Shown: positions 48,519-57,125 of the stretch, piece after piece
Numbering within the stretch: the first letter of the stretch is position 1
Layout of the letters: each line of letters opens with the position of its first letter
From: Acidimicrobiia bacterium
GTDB taxonomy: Bacteria; Actinomycetota; Acidimicrobiia; Acidimicrobiales; Bin134
Reading direction: 5' to 3'
Assembly: GCA_022819825.1 (NCBI GenBank)
Contig: JAJEGM010000053.1
Coordinates: 129,722-193,721, forward strand
DNA length: 64,000 bases
Made by a program: the position numbers and the translations under genes
The notes under the pieces: model-generated
Database searches by the model: none
What the model saw: the letters and a program-made list of their open reading frames with translations, nothing else
Told to the model about the DNA's origin: nothing

Positions 48519-50794
48519 CAATTACCGCCACCGGCAGTCATAGCCTTCTGGATCTGGACCTGGCCGAACTCATGGCCCAGGCCCGAGAGATTCGGGATCG
48601 AGCGCACGGTGCCCGGGTGACCTATTCCCCGAAGGTGTTCATCCCACTCACCATGCTGTGCCGGGACAAATGCGGCTACTGCACCTTCGCCCAGCCTCCG
48701 GCTCGGTTGGAGTCGCCCTACCTCAGCGATCACGACGTGCTGGCCATCGCCGAATCGGGAGCGGCCGCCGGCTGCCACGAAGCGCTCTTCACCTTGGGCG
48801 AGCGCCCCGAACTGCGCTACCCCGATGCCGCAAAGTGGCTGAATCAGCACGGATTTGCCTCCACCGTGGACTACCTGGCCCATGCCACCCGGCTCGTGGT
48901 GGACAAGACCGGGCTGCTCCCCCACGCCAACGCCGGGGCGCTTTATTCCGAGGAACTGGCCCTGCTCCGCAAGACCTCCCCATCGCAGGGGATGATGCTC
49001 GAGACCCTGGCCGATCTGGACTGCCATCGGGGATCACCCGACAAGACCCCCGACCGGCGCCTGGCCACTTTGGAGGCCGCGGGTCGACTGGCCATCCCGT
49101 TCACTACCGGAATCCTGGTGGGGATCGGGGAAACTCGCGCCGACCGAGTCGACGCCCTAGAGGCCATCGCTGAATCTCATCGGCGCTGGGGCCACATTCA
49201 AGAGGTCATTGTCCAGAATTTCCTGCCCAAGCCGGGCACGGCCATGCACGCCGCTCCGCCCTGCGAGGGCGACGAGTATCTGGAAGCCATCGCTCTCGCT
49301 CGTCTCATCTTGCCTGAGGAGATCCACCTTCAGGCCCCGCCCAACCTCTCTGACGACTTCGGTCGGCTGCTCGATGCGGGCATCGACGATTGGGGAGGGG
49401 TCTCCCCCGTCACCGCTGACCACGTGAATCCTGAGCGCCCATGGCCTGCCCTCGAACGATTGCGGGCAGTCACAGAGACCAAAGGGTTCGCTTTGGCACC
49501 CCGGCTGACCGTGTATCCCGAGTACGCGCTCGACTCCGAGCGATGGCTCGATCAGGACATGCGGTTCCCAGTGCTTGACCGCAGCGATGCCGAGGGTCTG
49601 GGACGATCCGATGACGGCGGCTGGTACTCCGGCGCTGATGCCGCACCGCCGCAGTTGCTCACGCCACCGCCTAGCCGCGGCACTGCCGGAGGTGCGGTAG
49701 GCGAAGTAATTGCCGGGGTCCGGGCTGGCCAAGAAGTCGGGGTCGAAGAGATCGTGACCCTATTTGGTGCTCGGGGACCCGAAGTCCGATCGGTGGCTGC
49801 GCTGGCCGACGAGCTACGCCAAAGCGCGGTGGGAGACGAGGTCACCTGGGTGTCCAACCGCAACATCAACTACACCAACGTGTGTACGTTCAAGTGCCGG
49901 TTTTGTGGATTCTCCAAGGGCCCGCTGTCGCTCAACCTGAGAGGCGACCCCTACTTGCTGAGCCTGGACGACATCGCCGAGCGCACGGTAGAGGCGGCCG
50001 AGGCCGGTGCCACGGAGGTCTGCTTGCAAGGCGGCATCCACCCCAACTTCGATGGCGACTACTACATCGACGTCACCCGGGCCGTGAAAGACGCGGTCCC
50101 CGACATCCATGTCCACGGATTCACCGCCCTCGAGGTCACTGAGGGCGCCCGACGGCTGGAAGAGCCGCTGGCCGACTATCTGCGCCGGTTGATGGACGCC
50201 GGCCTCCGCTCACTGCCCGGCACGGCCGCGGAGATTCTCGACGATGAGATTCGGGCAGTGATCTGCCCCGACAAGATCGACACCGGCGAGTGGTTGGAGG
50301 CTCACCGCACCGCCCACGGGCTCGGCTTGCGGTCCAACGTGACCATCATGTTCGGCACGGTCGAGCAGCCCGTGCACTGGGCTCGCCACCTGGTCCGCAC
50401 CCGCGAGCTCCAAAAGGAGACCGGCGGGTTCACCGAATTCGTCCCGCTGCCGTTCGTTCACATGGCCGCTCCCATCTACTTGCAAAAGCGATCCCGACGG
50501 GGTCCCACCTTCCGGGAGGCATTGCTGATGCACGCCGTGGGCCGTATCGCCTACCACGGCTGGATCCACAACATCCAGGCCTCCTGGGTGAAGTTGGGCA
50601 TGGCGGGGGCCGCCCAGATGCTCCAAGCCGGCGTGAACGACTTGGGCGGCACCCTAATCAACGAGAACATCTCCCGGGCCGCCGGCGCCTCCCACGGCCA
50701 AGAAGCCACCGAGGGCGACCTTCAGGCCATCTGCGCCCCCCTAGGCCGCACCCTCCACCAACGCACCACGCTTTATGACGCAGTAGCGGGATAG
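48515..50794 (+). CDS. fbiC: FbiC, F0 synthase (CofG-CofH fusion)
   Basis: 759 residues. Makes the F0 chromophore of coenzyme F420 from tyrosine and a flavin-pathway intermediate. It has two radical-SAM domains: the CofG half with CRDKCGYC (C-x3-C-x2-C) and the CofH half with CTFKCRFC, each followed by family blocks (FTLGERPELRYP; CLQGGIHPNF). GTG 48515 overlaps the tal stop. Although near the peptide export module, it is a housekeeping F420 gene and not a RiPP enzyme. Confidence 0.97.
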   Translation: MTITATGSHSLLDLDLAELMAQAREIRDRAHGARVTYSPKVFIPLTMLCRDKCGYCTFAQPPARLESPYLSDHDVLAIAESGAAAGCHEALFTLGERPELRYPDAAKWLNQHGFASTVDYLAHATRLVVDKTGLLPHANAGALYSEELALLRKTSPSQGMMLETLADLDCHRGSPDKTPDRRLATLEAAGRLAIPFTTGILVGIGETRADRVDALEAIAESHRRWGHIQEVIVQNFLPKPGTAMHAAPPCEGDEYLEAIALARLILPEEIHLQAPPNLSDDFGRLLDAGIDDWGGVSPVTADHVNPERPWPALERLRAVTETKGFALAPRLTVYPEYALDSERWLDQDMRFPVLDRSDAEGLGRSDDGGWYSGADAAPPQLLTPPPSRGTAGGAVGEVIAGVRAGQEVGVEEIVTLFGARGPEVRSVAALADELRQSAVGDEVTWVSNRNINYTNVCTFKCRFCGFSKGPLSLNLRGDPYLLSLDDIAERTVEAAEAGATEVCLQGGIHPNFDGDYYIDVTRAVKDAVPDIHVHGFTALEVTEGARRLEEPLADYLRRLMDAGLRSLPGTAAEILDDEIRAVICPDKIDTGEWLEAHRTAHGLGLRSNVTIMFGTVEQPVHWARHLVRTRELQKETGGFTEFVPLPFVHMAAPIYLQKRSRRGPTFREALLMHAVGRIAYHGWIHNIQASWVKLGMAGAAQMLQAGVNDLGGTLINENISRAAGASHGQEATEGDLQAICAPLGRTLHQRTTLYDAVAG

Positions 50795-50827
50795 GCACCC
50801 GCCGCTACTGCCTCCACTCAGAGGCAG
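50780..50827 (+). terminator. two mutually exclusive hairpins at the fbiC 3' end
   Basis: Hairpin 1 pairs GCAGTAGCGG (50780-50789) with CCGCTACTGC (50802-50811), spanning the fbiC stop. Hairpin 2 pairs CTGCCTC (50808-50814) with GAGGCAG (50821-50827). They share 50808-50811, so only one can form. A pyrimidine-rich run (C9-T-C6, 50839-50854) follows instead of a T-tract, so simple intrinsic termination is uncertain. Confidence 0.45.
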
Positions 50828-50863
50828 ACGGGTTATTGCCCCCCCCCTCCCCCCTAAGCTAGA

Positions 50864-50877
50864 TTGGCATTCGCCAA
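50864..50877. promoter_or_regulatory. inverted repeat before the leader-peptide gene
   Basis: TTGGC-ATTC-GCCAA is a perfect 5-bp inverted repeat, 26 bases before the peptide ATG. TTGGCA could also serve as a -35 with TAGACT (50885-50890) as -10, though the 15-base spacing is short. An operator over the promoter is plausible. Confidence 0.35.
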
Positions 50878-50902
50878 ATATTCCTAGACTGAAGGCAGGC
50901 AA

Positions 50903-51085
50903 ATGTCGGACACAGCCAAGAAGAATCACCAGGATGGGGTTGAGTTGACCGAATCCGAGTTGGAGCAAATCCAAGGCGCCAGCGGCGGCAGCGGGAGCAC
51001 AACTCCGTCTGTCGGCCATACAACCGGAAACATTGGCCCCGGTGCCGCTTCTGCCAATGCCAGATATAACGCGGCCAACCCGTAG
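50903..51085 (+). CDS. double-glycine leader peptide, putative NHLM-type precursor
   Basis: 60 residues. The leader (1-26) ends LTESELEQIQGA, which fits the consensus L-S-x-x-E-L-x-x-I-x-G-[GA] cut by C39 peptidases, so cleavage after Ala26 is expected. The predicted core of 34 residues (SGGSGSTTPSVGHTTGNIG and on to ARYNAANP) is rich in Gly, Ser, Thr, Ala and Asn, has one Tyr, one His and one Arg, and has no Cys. AAGG (50892-50895) precedes ATG 50903. It faces, tail to tail, three export genes whose first ABC protein carries a C39 peptidase. No modification enzyme is seen. It may be exported unmodified. Confidence 0.75.
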   Translation: MSDTAKKNHQDGVELTESELEQIQGASGGSGSTTPSVGHTTGNIGPGAASANARYNAANP

Positions 51086-51107: not shown

Positions 51108-54101
51108 CTATGCCAGTTGGCGCTCCACTAGCCGCCGGAACACACCGCCAGCGTCGTAGAGTTCTTTGAAGTCTCCAGCTTGCACGACGCGCCCCGATTG
51201 CATCACATAGATGCGGTCGGCTTGACGGATTGTGGAGAGCCGGTGCGCGATCACGATGCGGGTGGCGGCGAGGCGCTCAATGCCGGCCATAACCTGAGCC
51301 TGGCTGCGCGAGTCCAGCCAACTCGTTGCCTCGTCTAACCACACCACGCGCGGGTTGCGCGCCAGCGCCGCTGCTATGCGGATTCTCTGCGTCTGCCCAC
51401 CCGAGAACATCGAGCCTTCAGTGACCACGGTGTGAAGCTGCATCGGCATGTCGGAGATCTCATCGGCAATGTCGGCCCGACGGGCCGCGCTCCATGCGTC
51501 TTCAATGGTCAAGTCGTCGCCCATTCCGATGATGTTGTCGGAGAGGGTGCCGGGTTGCAGCGCGCCGTCCTGGGTCACCACGCCTAATTGCCGGCGCAGC
51601 GCATAGCGGTCGAGGAAGGCCACATCGCGACCGTCGTAGTACACGCTGCCTGATATCGGCGCCTCGAGTCCGAGCCCGAGGCGCATCAGAGTGCTCTTGC
51701 CGGAGCCGGAGTCGCCGACTATCGCGATGAACTCGCCCGGGCGCGCGGCGATCGACACCTCAGTGATGAGCTCCACATCTGGGTCGTAGCGGAAGCTGAC
51801 ATGGTCGAAGCGAACGTCGCCTCCGATTTCAAAAGCACTGTCGCCCCGACCTGAAGGCTCGGGGCGCTCCCGCAGCACCGGCTTGACCTGCTCGTATGCA
51901 GGCACCGCCGCCGCCACAGCCTCGAAGGAGCGGGTGAGGCTGGCCGCAGCACCGTAGAAGGTCATTGCCACGGCGTAGACGACGAGGAAGTCGCTGACCG
52001 AGAGTCGGCCGCTTCCCCGCGACAAGGCGACGCCGCACAGGACCGCGCCGATCAACGCCGGCATCGCCGCGCCCAGCGATACCAGGTGCTCGTTCATGCG
52101 GGATACCGCAATAGCCGCCAAATGGCGCTCGCGATAATGGCGAGCCCATCGGGCGAAGGCGGAGGGCTCGGCCCCGGCCCCGCGCAGCTTGCTGATCCCG
52201 CCGATGAACTGGAGCAGGTCGCTGGTGGCGCGGCGCTCCGCGGCGAAACCGCGTCGCTGCGGTCCGAACTGCCGGAACCCGACCACCGCCCCGATTGCCA
52301 CGCTCAGAACAGCCAGCGAGAGGCTCACCACCGCGAGGGTTACGTCGTACACAAAGGGGATGGCAAGCGTGGGCGCCAAGAACACAACCGCCAGAAGCGA
52401 GTTCGCCACCAGGCCCGAGATCTGGTCGCGCATCCACTGGAAGCTCGCCATGCGCGTGGCGAGATCGCCGGTGGTGAATGTCCGCAGAAAGCTCGGCGGA
52501 AGAGACAGCACACGATCCCAGGCCGCCGCGCTGACGCGGGCGGCAACACGGCCTTCGAGGCGCATCAGCGAGGTTCCCAGTAGAACCTGTAGCACCACCC
52601 CCACAACGGCAAAGCTGCCGAGCGCCACGACCACTTGAACGAGCATGCCGCCGGACGCGCTCACGAGGACCCAGTCGGTGAGCACACCGATCGCCACTGC
52701 GGGCGCCTGCATCAAGACCGCGGCAGCAATCCCGGCAATCGCGAAGCGCGCCAAATCGCCGGCAATTCCCTGACTCGCGACGCTGGCGAGGTTGAGCACT
52801 CCTGCCTGTTGCTCTTTCGGAAAGGTCGGATAGCAGAGCCAGGCCTCATCGGCCAGTTCCTGGGCCGCCTCGGCGCTTAGCCGGCGCGTCGTTCCTTTGA
52901 CGGGATCGACCATGCGATACCGGCCGGTCCAATGCGGAAGCAGGGCAACGGGCTGGCCGTCTGCGGCGCGAAAACCGAGCATGGCACCGCTGTCGCCAAG
53001 CCACCACCGGTCCTCCCGGTCAAGCCGCACCTTACGCGCTCGCACACCCGATGAGCGCAAGACCTCAGGCAGGCTGGGGGCCTCGTCGGCGGTACCCGCT
53101 CGGCGAACTGGAGACTTGAAAACGATGCCTTGCCGCTGGCCGATCAGAGCCAACGCCGACATCAGGACAGATCCGTCATTCGCGGTGTAGGCGTGCTGGC
53201 GATCGAGGAGTCGATTGAGCGCCGACGCAGCCGACTCAGCGTCGCGGCGGCGCAGCGCCTCTCGCGTGGCCTGTTCGTTGACCGCGTCGGCTTGTAGCAG
53301 CAGCCGGTTGAGCTGCTCTGCGCTCAGCACAAGCCGGTGGAAATCCTCGAGGCACTCCAGAAGACGCCCCTCGTTGGCTAGTTGAGCAGAAGTGGCGAGG
53401 CGAGTTTCACTGCGCTGGGCCAGGGCGAGCCAGGTATCGGAGTTCAATGGCACGAACCCGGAGCCATCGCGGGGCAACTCCTCGGTGCCCAGATAGGAGG
53501 GCTCGCCTCCGCTGGCAGCAATCCACATGACGGTGCCGGGGCGAGATGACACGATTTTGGCAGAGACTTCCAGAGACGTGGGCGCCGATGCTGGGTCTAT
53601 CACCAGATCTGGGCGCGGGCGCGGTTCAATCGGTTCGGCGACTGCACTCGAGACCGCTGAGATCCAAACGTCTACCTGCGAGGCCAATTCTTCGGCCAGG
53701 GCGATGTCGGCGAGAGCTGATCTTTGCATCTTTGCCAGACGGGTGCCCGGGAGTCCCTTGCCGATGGCCACCAGCGATGAGTCGTCCGCTTCGAGGCCGA
53801 AGACGAGGTGTCCGGCTTCGGCCCGTACCAAGTGCCGTGCGTTGGAGGCGAGCTTGCCGTCATGGACTTCGAACAAGAACACATCGACCGCTCCAGAGAC
53901 CACGAGGTAAACCTGCGACGGGTCATCAAGAGTGACAGGCTTGTTGGCCGCGCTCAGCACATCTTCGCTCTCGCCCAACACGACCATCGCAATCTGAGAC
54001 GTATCGCTCATCTGTGCCAGACCAGCGTCCAAATGCGGTACCTCGCCTGGTCGCCGGTGAGAGCTCTCGGCCCAATGGTGCTGCGGAGGGAGGGGGTTCA
54101 T
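51108..54101 (-). CDS. NHLM-type ABC exporter, ATP-binding/permease without peptidase
   Basis: 997 residues from ATG 54101, which overlaps the stop of the peptidase-ABC gene (ATGA); the extra upstream frame is inside that gene. The N-terminal 400 or so residues form an NHLM-family regulatory domain with a beta-roll-like part (VYLVVSGAVDVFLF) reminiscent of cyclic-nucleotide-binding folds. Then come six membrane helices and an ABC domain with Walker A GDSGSGKST, signature FSGGQTQR and Walker B VVWLDEATSWLD. Pairs with the peptidase ABC protein to form the exporter. Confidence 0.9.
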   Translation of the reverse strand: MNPLPPQHHWAESSHRRPGEVPHLDAGLAQMSDTSQIAMVVLGESEDVLSAANKPVTLDDPSQVYLVVSGAVDVFLFEVHDGKLASNARHLVRAEAGHLVFGLEADDSSLVAIGKGLPGTRLAKMQRSALADIALAEELASQVDVWISAVSSAVAEPIEPRPRPDLVIDPASAPTSLEVSAKIVSSRPGTVMWIAASGGEPSYLGTEELPRDGSGFVPLNSDTWLALAQRSETRLATSAQLANEGRLLECLEDFHRLVLSAEQLNRLLLQADAVNEQATREALRRRDAESAASALNRLLDRQHAYTANDGSVLMSALALIGQRQGIVFKSPVRRAGTADEAPSLPEVLRSSGVRARKVRLDREDRWWLGDSGAMLGFRAADGQPVALLPHWTGRYRMVDPVKGTTRRLSAEAAQELADEAWLCYPTFPKEQQAGVLNLASVASQGIAGDLARFAIAGIAAAVLMQAPAVAIGVLTDWVLVSASGGMLVQVVVALGSFAVVGVVLQVLLGTSLMRLEGRVAARVSAAAWDRVLSLPPSFLRTFTTGDLATRMASFQWMRDQISGLVANSLLAVVFLAPTLAIPFVYDVTLAVVSLSLAVLSVAIGAVVGFRQFGPQRRGFAAERRATSDLLQFIGGISKLRGAGAEPSAFARWARHYRERHLAAIAVSRMNEHLVSLGAAMPALIGAVLCGVALSRGSGRLSVSDFLVVYAVAMTFYGAAASLTRSFEAVAAAVPAYEQVKPVLRERPEPSGRGDSAFEIGGDVRFDHVSFRYDPDVELITEVSIAARPGEFIAIVGDSGSGKSTLMRLGLGLEAPISGSVYYDGRDVAFLDRYALRRQLGVVTQDGALQPGTLSDNIIGMGDDLTIEDAWSAARRADIADEISDMPMQLHTVVTEGSMFSGGQTQRIRIAAALARNPRVVWLDEATSWLDSRSQAQVMAGIERLAATRIVIAHRLSTIRQADRIYVMQSGRVVQAGDFKELYDAGGVFRRLVERQLA

Positions 54102-56281
54102 TGCGAATGCACTAACTGGGTATAGAGGCCGTTGGGATCGGCAAGCAGCATCTCGTGGCTGCCCCGTTGCGTCTCGCGGCCTCGGTCCAAGACGATGATC
54201 TCGTCGCAGTCGCGGATCGTGCTGAGCCGATGCGCGACTATCAGGCACGAGCAACCTCGGCGGCGCAGCGCATCATCTATGCGTCTTTCGGTTTCGGCGT
54301 CGAGGGTGCTGGTAGCTTCATCGAGAAGCAACACCGACGGACGGGCGACAAGGGCGCGCGCTATCTCAAGGCGCTGGCGCTGTCCCCCGCTGAAGTTGGT
54401 TCCCCCCTCTCGGACATGGGCTTCGTACCCTCCGCGCCGGCGCATGATGTCGTCATGGATCATGGCATCGCGCGCCGCTGCGACCATGTCCGACTCCGAC
54501 GCGGCGGTGTTCCACATCGTGATGTTGTCGCGCACGCTGCCGTCGAAGAGCGTTACCTGTTGGTCTACCGTGGCCACCGAGCCGACGAACACCGGGCGCG
54601 GCACTTCGTGTGCGGGGACGCCGTCGAAGAGGATCTCACCCGACCACGGCTCGAACTCGCCGCTGATCAGACGCAGCAGGGTCGACTTTCCCGAGCCGGT
54701 CGGCCCCACCACCGCGACGCGCTGGCCGGGTTCGATCGTGAGGCTGAGCCCGTCGATGAGCGGTTCGGTCCTTCCTCTATAGCCGAACCCGAGCTCGCGC
54801 ACCTCCACACGGCCCGCCAACCGCAGACGCCCATCCAAAGTCGTCACATGCTCGGTTTGCAATCTGCGCTCGGAAGCGACCGCGGGGTCCTGCTCGGCGA
54901 CCACGATGTCGCGCACTCGCTGGACATCGGCGCCGAGGAGTTTGAATTCGTCTGCATACAGCGCAAAACGCCCGACGGGGGCCAAGAAACTGCCGGCCAA
55001 GACATACGCAGCAATAAGGTGGCCGACGCTGAGGTCTCCTTCGATGACGCGCCATCCGCCCAGCCCCAGAACAACCATCGCACCGAGGGCGAGGAACAGC
55101 CCTGGCAGGGCCGCGTTCACATAAGCCAATTCGACAGCCCGCTGTCGAGCCGAGAGCTCGCGCGCTTGGTGCCCGCCCCAGCGAACGAAAAAGTCATTCT
55201 CAGAAGCAGTGGCCCGCAGCGTGTCGATCTGACGCAGGCCGGCGGTCTCGATGCCGAACAGCAGAGCCTGCTCGCGGCGCAGCAGTCGCTGGTGATCCGT
55301 GCGACGCCCGCTCACCAGCCGCGCGGCCACCATATTGACCAGCGCCACAGCCAGCACGCTGGCGGCTATCAGCGGGTCGTAAACGGCGAGCAGCGCCAGC
55401 AGCAAAACACTCGTCACCAGTTCGACCGCGAGGCCGACGAGATGGCGGCCCGCTCCATCGGCGATCTCGTCCACAAGTCCCACCCGAGTGGTGAGATCGC
55501 CCGCATAGCGGTGGGCGAAGAACTGCTTCGGCAGACGCATCAGATGCCAAAGCACCCGCTGGGCCTGGGATACGGCCACGCCCACCGAGATCCGCCGCAG
55601 CATGCGCTGCTGCAACCAGGTGAGCAGATAGATCGCAGCACCGGCCAGTGCCATAGCCGCAACCACCCAGCCGCCCCAGTCGCGGGCTTCGCCGCCCAAA
55701 ACGCTGTCAACGAAGACGCCCAGCAAAACCGGCACTCCGAGGCTGGGGACAGCCATCAGCAGTCCGGCCAGCACAACATAGGCGAGCGCGCCGCGTGTCG
55801 CCCTCAGCCACGGCCACAGCGAGCGCCATACGCTGGGACGCTCCCCCGCTGCCTCGAACGAATCAGTCGGCTCAGCCGTGAGCACCACGCCGGTATAGGC
55901 ATCCTCTAGGGTCTGACGGCTCACGCTGCGACGGCCGTTGGCCGGATCGTTCAGGTGGTAGCGGCCGTCGGAGGCGCCCTCCAATACCAGGAAATGGTTG
56001 AACTCCCAGAACAGAATGGCCGGCAGGGCAAGCTCGTCGAGTGAGTCAATGTCCTTGCGCCAGCCGCGGACGGCCAACCCGTGCTTTCTCCCAGCGCGGA
56101 CGATCCCGGCGGCGCTGGCGCCGTCGCGTCCGACGCCGCATTCGTCCCGCAACTCCTCCAGGGGAACCCAGCGTCCGAAGTGCGCCAAGATGGCGGCCAA
56201 TGAGGCTGCCCCGCACTCCGCCGCCTCGAGCTGCGGAATCAGCGGTGTGCGAAGCCTGTGGCGCGGCAACAGGGTCGGCAT
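54098..56281 (-). CDS. C39 peptidase-containing ABC exporter (PCAT, NHLM type)
   Basis: 727 residues. The N-terminal C39 peptidase has its Cys23 in EAAECGAASLAAIL, His96 in FNHFLVLEG and Asp112 in LNDPANG, so the triad is intact. Six membrane helices follow, then an ABC domain with Walker A GPTGSGKST, signature FSGGQRQR and Walker B VLLLDEATSTLD. It should cut the double-glycine leader and export the core peptide. It starts 6 bases after the HlyD-like gene and overlaps the second ABC gene. Confidence 0.95.
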   Translation of the reverse strand: MPTLLPRHRLRTPLIPQLEAAECGAASLAAILAHFGRWVPLEELRDECGVGRDGASAAGIVRAGRKHGLAVRGWRKDIDSLDELALPAILFWEFNHFLVLEGASDGRYHLNDPANGRRSVSRQTLEDAYTGVVLTAEPTDSFEAAGERPSVWRSLWPWLRATRGALAYVVLAGLLMAVPSLGVPVLLGVFVDSVLGGEARDWGGWVVAAMALAGAAIYLLTWLQQRMLRRISVGVAVSQAQRVLWHLMRLPKQFFAHRYAGDLTTRVGLVDEIADGAGRHLVGLAVELVTSVLLLALLAVYDPLIAASVLAVALVNMVAARLVSGRRTDHQRLLRREQALLFGIETAGLRQIDTLRATASENDFFVRWGGHQARELSARQRAVELAYVNAALPGLFLALGAMVVLGLGGWRVIEGDLSVGHLIAAYVLAGSFLAPVGRFALYADEFKLLGADVQRVRDIVVAEQDPAVASERRLQTEHVTTLDGRLRLAGRVEVRELGFGYRGRTEPLIDGLSLTIEPGQRVAVVGPTGSGKSTLLRLISGEFEPWSGEILFDGVPAHEVPRPVFVGSVATVDQQVTLFDGSVRDNITMWNTAASESDMVAAARDAMIHDDIMRRRGGYEAHVREGGTNFSGGQRQRLEIARALVARPSVLLLDEATSTLDAETERRIDDALRRRGCSCLIVAHRLSTIRDCDEIIVLDRGRETQRGSHEMLLADPNGLYTQLVHSQ

Positions 56282-56287
56282 GGGCGA

Positions 56288-56860
56288 CTAGCGGGGGCCG
56301 GCAGCGGCGATGAAGCGGATCGGGGCCCGTTGCCCGGTCACGATGCGCACACCGCATGTGCTGCCGTTTTGCAATGCTGCGGGGGCGTCGTCGATCAAAT
56401 CGAGCCAAACACTGTGAGTAGCACCCTCACTCCACAACGCCCGGCCGGACCAGAAACCACCCCCGTCAGCATCGCCGATCTCGACATTGCGGACCTCGGC
56501 GTGGAGCACGCCGTCCACGCCCAAAGAGGTGATGCGCGCCCTCATGCCCGGCTTGACGCTGTGCGCCTGTTGGGGACTAAGTCTGGTTAGCGCCCGCAGC
56601 TCCGGGGGCCGAGGAGCAAAGGAGTCTTCTTGGCTCACAGCTTGCACCCCGTCTCGCACCACGAATAAGCAGTCCTCTTGGAACCCTCGCTCGATCGTCC
56701 CCAGCACCGCCCAAGCAAGAACTCCCAGCAGAGCCAGACCGAGCAGTAACAAGAACAGCCACTCGTGAGGCGCCGTTATGCGCAGCGCCCCGTCAATCGG
56801 CTCAGCGCGCCCGCGCCGTGCCAAAGCCTGCTCGCGAAACAGCGGCCTGCGTTCAGCCAT
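56288..56860 (-). CDS. short HlyD-like secretion protein, NHLM type
   Basis: 190 residues from ATG 56860 (GTG 56869 also possible). Cytoplasmic N-terminus (FREQALARRGRAEPID, shared by NHLM secretion proteins), one membrane helix (WLFLLLLGLALLGVLAWAVLG), then a short extracytoplasmic domain with a barrel-like end (RITSLGVDGVLHAEVRNVEI). The long coiled coil of classical HlyD is missing, fitting a Gram-positive-type envelope. First gene of the export operon. Confidence 0.8.
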   Translation of the reverse strand: MAERRPLFREQALARRGRAEPIDGALRITAPHEWLFLLLLGLALLGVLAWAVLGTIERGFQEDCLFVVRDGVQAVSQEDSFAPRPPELRALTRLSPQQAHSVKPGMRARITSLGVDGVLHAEVRNVEIGDADGGGFWSGRALWSEGATHSVWLDLIDDAPAALQNGSTCGVRIVTGQRAPIRFIAAAGPR

Positions 56861-56910
56861 CGGGTACACACTTTACCGAAGGCGCACAGCACCTCTGGTA
56901 GATACTGCCG

Positions 56911-56958
56911 ACCCTCCAAGAGTCTGCTGACCCTCCAAGAGTCTGCTAACCCTCCAAG
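56911..56958. repeat. 19-bp tandem repeat, 2.5 copies, at a gene end
   Basis: ACCCTCCAAGAGTCTGCT plus one base is repeated at 56911-56929 and 56930-56948, with a partial third copy to 56958. The last unit overlaps the C-terminal codons and stop of the 59-residue gene, so the gene end has been multiplied downstream of its stop. Confidence 0.7.
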
Positions 56959-57125
56959 ATTGAGATTGCCTTTTCCACGGACCGGCGGGCCCGGGTTAGC
57001 TTTTTCTCTCGCTCGGGGCGGGTTGTGGCCCCTTCTTCCACGGCATCGCGCAGCACTGACATGGCCAGATCGTCGAGTTGCTCAGCGATCTGTTCGAGCT
57101 GCTCACGGATGTGCTCAGCCGTCAT
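56946..57125 (-). CDS. small helical protein downstream of glcF
   Basis: 59 residues, translated by hand: MTAEHIREQLEQIAEQLDD at the start, then a basic middle (RPEREKKLTRARR) and VEKAISILEG at the end. It is nearly all helical, with a leucine heptad pattern, and probably forms a coiled coil. ATG 57125 lies inside the last codons of glcF (11-base overlap), so it is coupled to the glycolate oxidase operon. Family not recognised. Confidence 0.65.
   Translation of the reverse strand: MTAEHIREQLEQIAEQLDDLAMSVLRDAVEEGATTRPEREKKLTRARRSVEKAISILEG

What the first reader, a model, noticed from the sequence alone, without database searches (positions are those of the whole stretch)
50903..51085. Cys-free, low-complexity core peptide with a textbook C39 leader
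The leader LTESELEQIQGA keeps every consensus position, which is unlikely by chance. The predicted 34-residue core is Gly/Ser/Thr/Ala/Asn-rich with a single His, Arg and Tyr and no Cys. It cannot be a lanthipeptide or sactipeptide. Its Ser/Thr/Asn content would suit azoline, glycosylation or epimerisation chemistry, or a disordered signalling peptide.
Basis: partly seen in the sequence, partly recalled or inferred. Interest (0 to 1): 0.6.

Follow-up and report, generated by a model that had tools for sequence, protein, structure and literature searches.

The report
Short-leader secreted peptide with NHLM exporter
A marine actinobacterium carries a compact, recently inserted gene module that makes a small polar peptide and the two-part pump that should cut off its leader and export it; close relatives of the pump in sponge bacteria handle bigger, probably enzyme-decorated peptides, so this looks like a stripped-down version of a known secretion system.

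Summary
The ORF is real: 60 codons at 50903-51085 (+), with a 26-residue double-glycine-type leader (L-12, E-8, L-7, I-4, G-2, A-1) and a 34-residue Cys-free polar core. The leader motif occurs once in the window and in 0 of 100 shuffles. It lies 22 bp tail-to-tail with a complete NHLM peptide-export operon (HlyD, C39-peptidase ABC1, ABC2) that the finding did not name. In other members of the genus the flanking genes abut; here a 6.2-kb insert holds exactly precursor plus exporter. Three other Acidimicrobiia MAGs carry the same module, with an orthologous, equally convergent precursor, at a different housekeeping site. Leaders are conserved (58% identity); cores diverge (29-36%) and lack Cys. 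In a tree of 89 exporters, the short-leader precursors sit in one clade nested among exporters of long NHLP (proteusin) precursors; that clade also lacks an ABBA-fold prenyltransferase found beside the NHLP systems. No YcaO, LanC-like, SPASM or such prenyltransferase was found in the genome. Most likely: cleaved after Gly25-Ala26 and exported, probably unmodified; role (competition factor or signal) undecided. New variant of a known kind.

The parts
50903..50980 (+). leader peptide, residues 1-26, ending Gly25-Ala26
   Evidence: double-glycine consensus complete except Ala at -1, an accepted variant (PMC6959990, PMC10885120); conserved in L042-L044
50981..51085 (+). core peptide, 34 residues (S27-P60), plus stop
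   Evidence: Cys-free, about 3.1 kDa, GRAVY -0.53
50788..50902 (.). left edge of the insertion and 5' region of the precursor; C-rich run and TTGGC-ATTC-GCCAA inverted repeat; no sigma-70-type promoter match
51108..54101 (-). ABC2: NHLM permease/ATPase partner; its ATG overlaps the ABC1 stop (ATGA)
   Evidence: TIGR03797 678 bits, E 2e-203, slightly under cut-off 709; the ORF opens further upstream at TTG 54254
54098..56281 (-). ABC1: C39 peptidase / permease / ATPase; triad Cys23, His96, Asp112 intact
   Evidence: TIGR03796 882 bits, over cut-off 853; C39 domain closest to LahT 6mpz, E 3e-37
56288..56869 (-). short HlyD-like adaptor (193 aa; about 300 aa in sister systems)
   Evidence: TIGR03794 N-terminal part only, E 6e-5, under cut-off; L042-L044 have the same short form
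56870..56953 (.). right edge of the insertion, with a 19-bp tandem repeat x 2.9 at 56905-56959

Best explanation
It is the cargo of an NHLM (TIGR03796/03797) peptide exporter in a reduced form of that system. The precursor is made from its own + strand transcript. The C39 domain of ABC1 binds its leader, cuts after Gly25-Ala26, and the ABC1/ABC2 exporter with a short HlyD-like adaptor moves a 34-residue polar, probably unstructured and probably unmodified peptide out of the cell. Precursor and exporter move between genomes as one module. Outside the cell I think a competition factor (bacteriocin-like) is somewhat more likely than a signal. Shown: ORF, leader match, intact triad, co-inheritance, empty site, orthologous precursors, absence of the tested modification families. 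Inferred: cleavage, export, lack of modification, extracellular role (about 0.4 for competition factor).
For: Leader fits the PCAT consensus L-12, E-8, L-7, G-2 with a hydrophobic -4 (PMC6959990; PMC10885120 lists GA as a cleavable motif). Adjacent NHLM operon with intact C39 triad. Empty site: in relatives of the same genus fbiC and the xseB-like gene abut (window 50787 and 56954 are 8 bp apart in L136; likewise L135, L138, L140, L143, L148), so a 6.2-kb block with precursor plus exporter only was gained or lost as a unit. L042-L044 carry the module with a convergent orthologous precursor between purM and malic enzyme. 58% leader against 29-36% core identity to them. Short precursors confined to one exporter clade, 17 rows, SH-aLRT 98; no NHLP precursor found in that clade. 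All 4 Acidimicrobiia-class genomes with a profile hit are among the 11 of 395 with the exporter. No YcaO, LanC-like, SPASM or ABBA prenyltransferase match in the genome.
Against: No immunity gene, regulator or receptor in the module, so the extracellular role is a guess. The core is polar and not amphipathic, unlike pore-forming class II bacteriocins. The genome is 91% complete, so an absent enzyme may be missed; two of the absence searches (LanB N-terminal domain; ABBA prenyltransferase) had no positive control. Three members of the exporter clade (L047, L054, L057) show no recognisable precursor. No expression data.
Confidence: 0.65

Rival explanations
1. An extracellular signal (pheromone) sensed by kin, exported and trimmed by the NHLM pump as ComC/BlpC are by ComA-type exporters.
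For: Best weak profile matches include pheromone leaders (VP1, ComC; BlpC for L051); small, polar core; core recognisable within a clade (N.G.GAA; APDVPLPDD in L051 and L182).
Against: Those matches cover mainly the generic leader and are far below cut-offs. No histidine kinase, response regulator or Rgg-like gene in the module, which inserted without one. Several different cores per exporter in L043 and L046.
Confidence: 0.25
2. A modified RiPP whose enzyme acts in trans from elsewhere in the genome (glycosyltransferase, epimerase, prenyltransferase).
For: Sister exporters carry NHLP precursors with an ABBA-fold prenyltransferase; Ser/Thr/Asn/Tyr in the cores could be modified.
Against: No YcaO, LanC-like, SPASM or ABBA match in the genome; 23 of 23 clade loci lack the prenyltransferase; flanking proteins tested are housekeeping or transport genes.
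Confidence: 0.2
3. A host-directed or matrix peptide used in sponge symbiosis rather than a weapon or a signal between bacteria.
For: Related cassettes come almost only from marine, largely sponge-derived MAGs of many phyla (sponge origin partly inferred from record names).
Against: No direct evidence; habitat bias of the MAG collections.
Confidence: 0.1
4. A decaying precursor that is no longer expressed.
For: No recognisable sigma-70 promoter; GC3 lower than neighbours.
Against: Intact frame, intact leader, intact exporter, orthologues with a constrained leader.
Confidence: 0.08

Closest known systems
NHLM export system (TIGR03794/03796/03797; Haft, Basu, Mitchell 2010, PMC2887384)
   Same: C39-peptidase ABC plus peptidase-less ABC plus HlyD-like protein, next to a Gly-Gly-type precursor with variable core
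   Different: precursor is 55-75 aa without the nitrile-hydratase-like or Nif11 leader; no modification enzyme; HlyD shortened
Class II (unmodified) bacteriocins and ComC/BlpC pheromones with double-glycine leaders
   Same: short leader cut by a C39 ABC transporter; no modification genes
   Different: no family model reached; no immunity or two-component genes; polar Gly/Ser/Asn-rich core
Proteusins of sponge symbionts (srp clusters, NHLP families; PMC9426513, PMC10858898)
   Same: related exporters, probably same habitat, same LxxxxL plus GG recognition motif
   Different: long structured leader and maturases are absent here
LahT-type systems with many precursors (PMC10885120)
   Same: several precursors with one leader and diverse cores served by one C39 transporter; C39 domain closest to LahT
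   Different: no LanM, no Cys

Membership tests
NHLM exporter | TIGR03796 ABC1 with C39 peptidase over curated cut-off | tested here: met
   882 against 853 bits; triad aligned to LahT 6mpz
NHLM exporter | TIGR03797 ABC2 partner | tested here: inconclusive
   best family by far, full length, 678 bits but under cut-off 709
NHLM exporter | TIGR03794 HlyD-like protein | tested here: inconclusive
   only 46 N-terminal positions match, E 6e-5, far under cut-off; protein is 193 aa
NHLP / proteusin precursor | nitrile-hydratase-like leader of about 75 aa (TIGR03793) | tested here: not met
   no match for the 60-aa precursor; sister locus L058 peptide scores over cut-off
Nif11 leader precursor (TIGR03798) | Nif11-like leader | tested here: not met
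   no match
Class II lanthipeptide | Cys in core and LanM/LanC-like enzyme | tested here: not met
   no Cys; no PF05147 match in genome; Mersacidin profile E 7e-4 is below its cut-off and covers mainly the leader
TOMM / azoline RiPP | YcaO cyclodehydratase | tested here: not met
   no PF02624 in genome
Sactipeptide | Cys in core and SPASM radical SAM enzyme | tested here: not met
   no Cys; no PF13186 in genome
Double-glycine-leader (PCAT) substrate | hydrophobic -4, -7, -12 and G-2, G/A/S-1 | tested here: met
   L-12, L-7, I-4, G-2, A-1
Double-glycine-leader (PCAT) substrate | actual cleavage and export by the cognate transporter | not testable with these tools
   needs an enzyme assay
Class II bacteriocin | antimicrobial activity and dedicated immunity gene | tested here: inconclusive
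   no immunity-gene candidate in the 6.2-kb insert; activity not testable

The most novel reading that the evidence does not exclude
One lineage of sponge-symbiont NHLM exporters gave up both the proteusin-type leader and its ABBA-fold prenyltransferase and now exports families of minimal, unmodified, Cys-free, fast-changing peptides, spreading as a precursor-plus-pump module among Acidimicrobiia and Chloroflexota.
Probability: 0.45. Interest if true: 0.6.

Novelty: new variant of a known kind. Interest (0 to 1): 0.45.

Why it matters
NHLM exporters are usually read as markers of heavily modified RiPPs. A clade that serves short, enzyme-free precursors would mean that genome-mining tools mislabel or miss these small genes, would show how a RiPP system can lose its chemistry and keep its pump, and gives a 34-residue peptide that can simply be synthesised and tested.

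Tried and rejected
Precursor searched alone: only weak hits in same-genus genomes (the G016 hit proved to be a precursor of another NHLM cassette) and none in plasmids; neighbours were found through the exporter instead. Lantibiotic and pheromone profile matches rejected as generic leader similarity. The adjacent FbiC-like radical SAM protein rejected as a maturase: its orthologue sits next to glcF in cassette-free relatives. Second precursor elsewhere in the genome: none significant. Promoter/terminator scan gave nothing usable. No NHLP precursor was found in the clade. LanB search had no positive control. Paper searches found no description of this short-leader family, but most subscription papers are not held; the srp paper (JACS 2021) could not be read.

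Full report
What is there. The ORF 50903-51085 (+) encodes MSDTAKKNHQDGVELTESELEQIQGA | SGGSGSTTPSVGHTTGNIGPGAASANARYNAANP. Residues 15-26 fill the double-glycine consensus L(-12)xxxE(-8)L(-7)xxxxG(-2)G(-1) given in PMC6959990, with Ile at -4 and Ala at -1; GG, GA and GS are all named as C39 cleavage motifs in PMC10885120. The motif occurs once in six frames of the window and on average 0.0 times in 100 dinucleotide Markov shuffles.

Surroundings. On the opposite strand, 22 bp from the stop codon, ends an operon: HlyD-like (56869-56288), ABC1 with C39 peptidase (56281-54098) and ABC2 (54101-51108; its ATG overlaps the ABC1 stop). ABC1 passes the curated cut-off of TIGR03796; ABC2 is nearest to TIGR03797 but a little under its cut-off. 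The C39 domain aligns to LahT (6mpz) with Cys23, His96 and Asp112 in place. Left neighbours are transketolase/transaldolase-like genes and an FbiC-like radical SAM protein; right neighbours are an xseB-like ORF (weak match) and a glycolate-oxidase-type Fe-S protein (the names of genes not scanned are from sequence inspection).

The module is a unit. In same-genus genomes without this exporter, the FbiC gene and the xseB-like/GlcF genes abut: in L136 (93% identical flanks) window positions 50787 and 56954 are 8 bp apart, and L135, L138, L140, L143, L148 agree. The window thus has a 6.2-kb block that contains only precursor, ABC2, ABC1 and HlyD. I cannot prove whether it was gained here or lost in the others; among the genus members searched only the window genome and G016 have an NHLM ABC1 at the threshold used, and G016's is a more distant copy (57%), so gain is simpler. 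A 19-bp tandem repeat and a C-rich run sit at the two edges; no transposase or integrase is in the block.

Orthologues. Three Acidimicrobiia MAGs (L042-L044; ABC1 83% identical) have the same cassette at another place, between an AIR-synthase gene and a malic enzyme, and each has a convergent precursor in the same position...DELTEAELEQVQGA|TGVSTGGQIVNPGAGAAASGTAKAATGTAAGL. Against the window: leader 58% and core 29-36% identical with indels, while ABC1 is 84% and HlyD 58-60%. Among L042-L044, core dN/dS is about 0.6-0.9, leader about 0.2-0.8, ABC1 about 0.12-0.16; the peptide counts are small, so this shows fast change, not proven positive selection. They also hold further precursors upstream of HlyD (ELTSEELQHVSGG|KGSGSSSSSSPYGTHTTQNNYSGSSK).

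The family. Twenty precursors aligned: only the LxxxELxxxxGG/GA block is common. Seventeen cores (518 residues) contain no Cys (P about 0.0017), are enriched in Asn (4.7-fold), Ser (2.2) and Tyr (2.2) and depleted in Leu (0.16), Val and Arg. One related peptide has one Cys (L182). Of 395 genomes of the class, 4 match the precursor profile and all 4 are among the 11 with the exporter; two of the four were in the profile, so the independent support is the other two (for G096 the precursor lies just behind an ABC2 end on another contig).

Where it came from. A tree of 89 ABC1 proteins (quick method) puts all 17 loci labelled short-leader on one branch (23 rows, SH-aLRT 98), inside exporters of MAGs of many phyla. 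NHLP-type precursors occur in more than thirty other loci, none in this branch. Those NHLP loci also carry, in 28 cases, a protein of about 350 aa with no Pfam or NCBIfam match in the copies scanned, which is absent from all 23 loci of the short branch. AlphaFold2 (pLDDT 87.7) and Foldseek place it with ABBA-fold aromatic prenyltransferases (NphB-type, EpzP, DMATS1, AmbP1; PagF and PatF lower down; best E 3e-6, TM-scores about 0.4-0.55). The simplest reading is that this exporter lineage lost both the proteusin-type leader and that enzyme. Some branch members are cut contigs, so absence there is weak.

Function. Own-genome searches found no YcaO, LanC-like, SPASM or ABBA homologue in a genome 91% complete. 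I therefore favour an unmodified exported peptide. Between weapon, signal and host factor the sequence does not decide: several unlike cores per pump, fast core change and transfer as a module favour competition; lack of an immunity gene and a polar non-amphipathic core speak against a classical pore former.

Limits. Sponge origin is inferred from record names (e.g. rhopaloidicola, lac_sponge, bin codes) and from knowledge of such collections (PMC8163846 describes one of about 1200 sponge MAGs); the window's own source was not given. Cleavage, export, expression and activity are untested.

Noticed in passing
L053:15163-16230 (-), L058:15903-16949 (-), L066:16985-18106 (-) and 25 more loci: Uncharacterised ~350-aa protein near NHLP precursors and NHLM exporters in MAGs of several phyla; no Pfam/NCBIfam match in the copies scanned, but the predicted fold is that of ABBA aromatic prenyltransferases. 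Possible prenylated proteusins.
   Followed up: partly
L078:8718-9137 (-), L068:15185-15454 (+), L071:8447-8812 (+), L098:9231-9554 (-), others: NHLP precursors whose whole core is a run of Cys (AAGLCCCG, AAGRCCCC) in Nitrospirota, Gemmatimonadota, Acidobacteriota and Pseudomonadota MAGs.
   Followed up: no
window 56288-56869 (-); L042-L044 9413-9994 (+): HlyD-like adaptor of only 193 aa against about 295-303 aa in sister cassettes; the part that matches HlyD_3 elsewhere seems to be missing.
   Followed up: partly
L107:15026-15325, L116:15347-15586, L117:7024-7207 (+), behind ABC2: Methylobacteriaceae/Rhizobiales NHLM cassettes have their own short GG/GA-leader peptides, with a shared core GGHWDHSGK.SMW.
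   Followed up: no
window 56905-56959: 19-bp tandem repeat, 2.9 copies, at the right edge of the insertion, overlapping the end of the xseB-like ORF.
   Followed up: no
L066:15189-21973: Nine NHLP precursor ORFs in one gammaproteobacterial locus.
   Followed up: no
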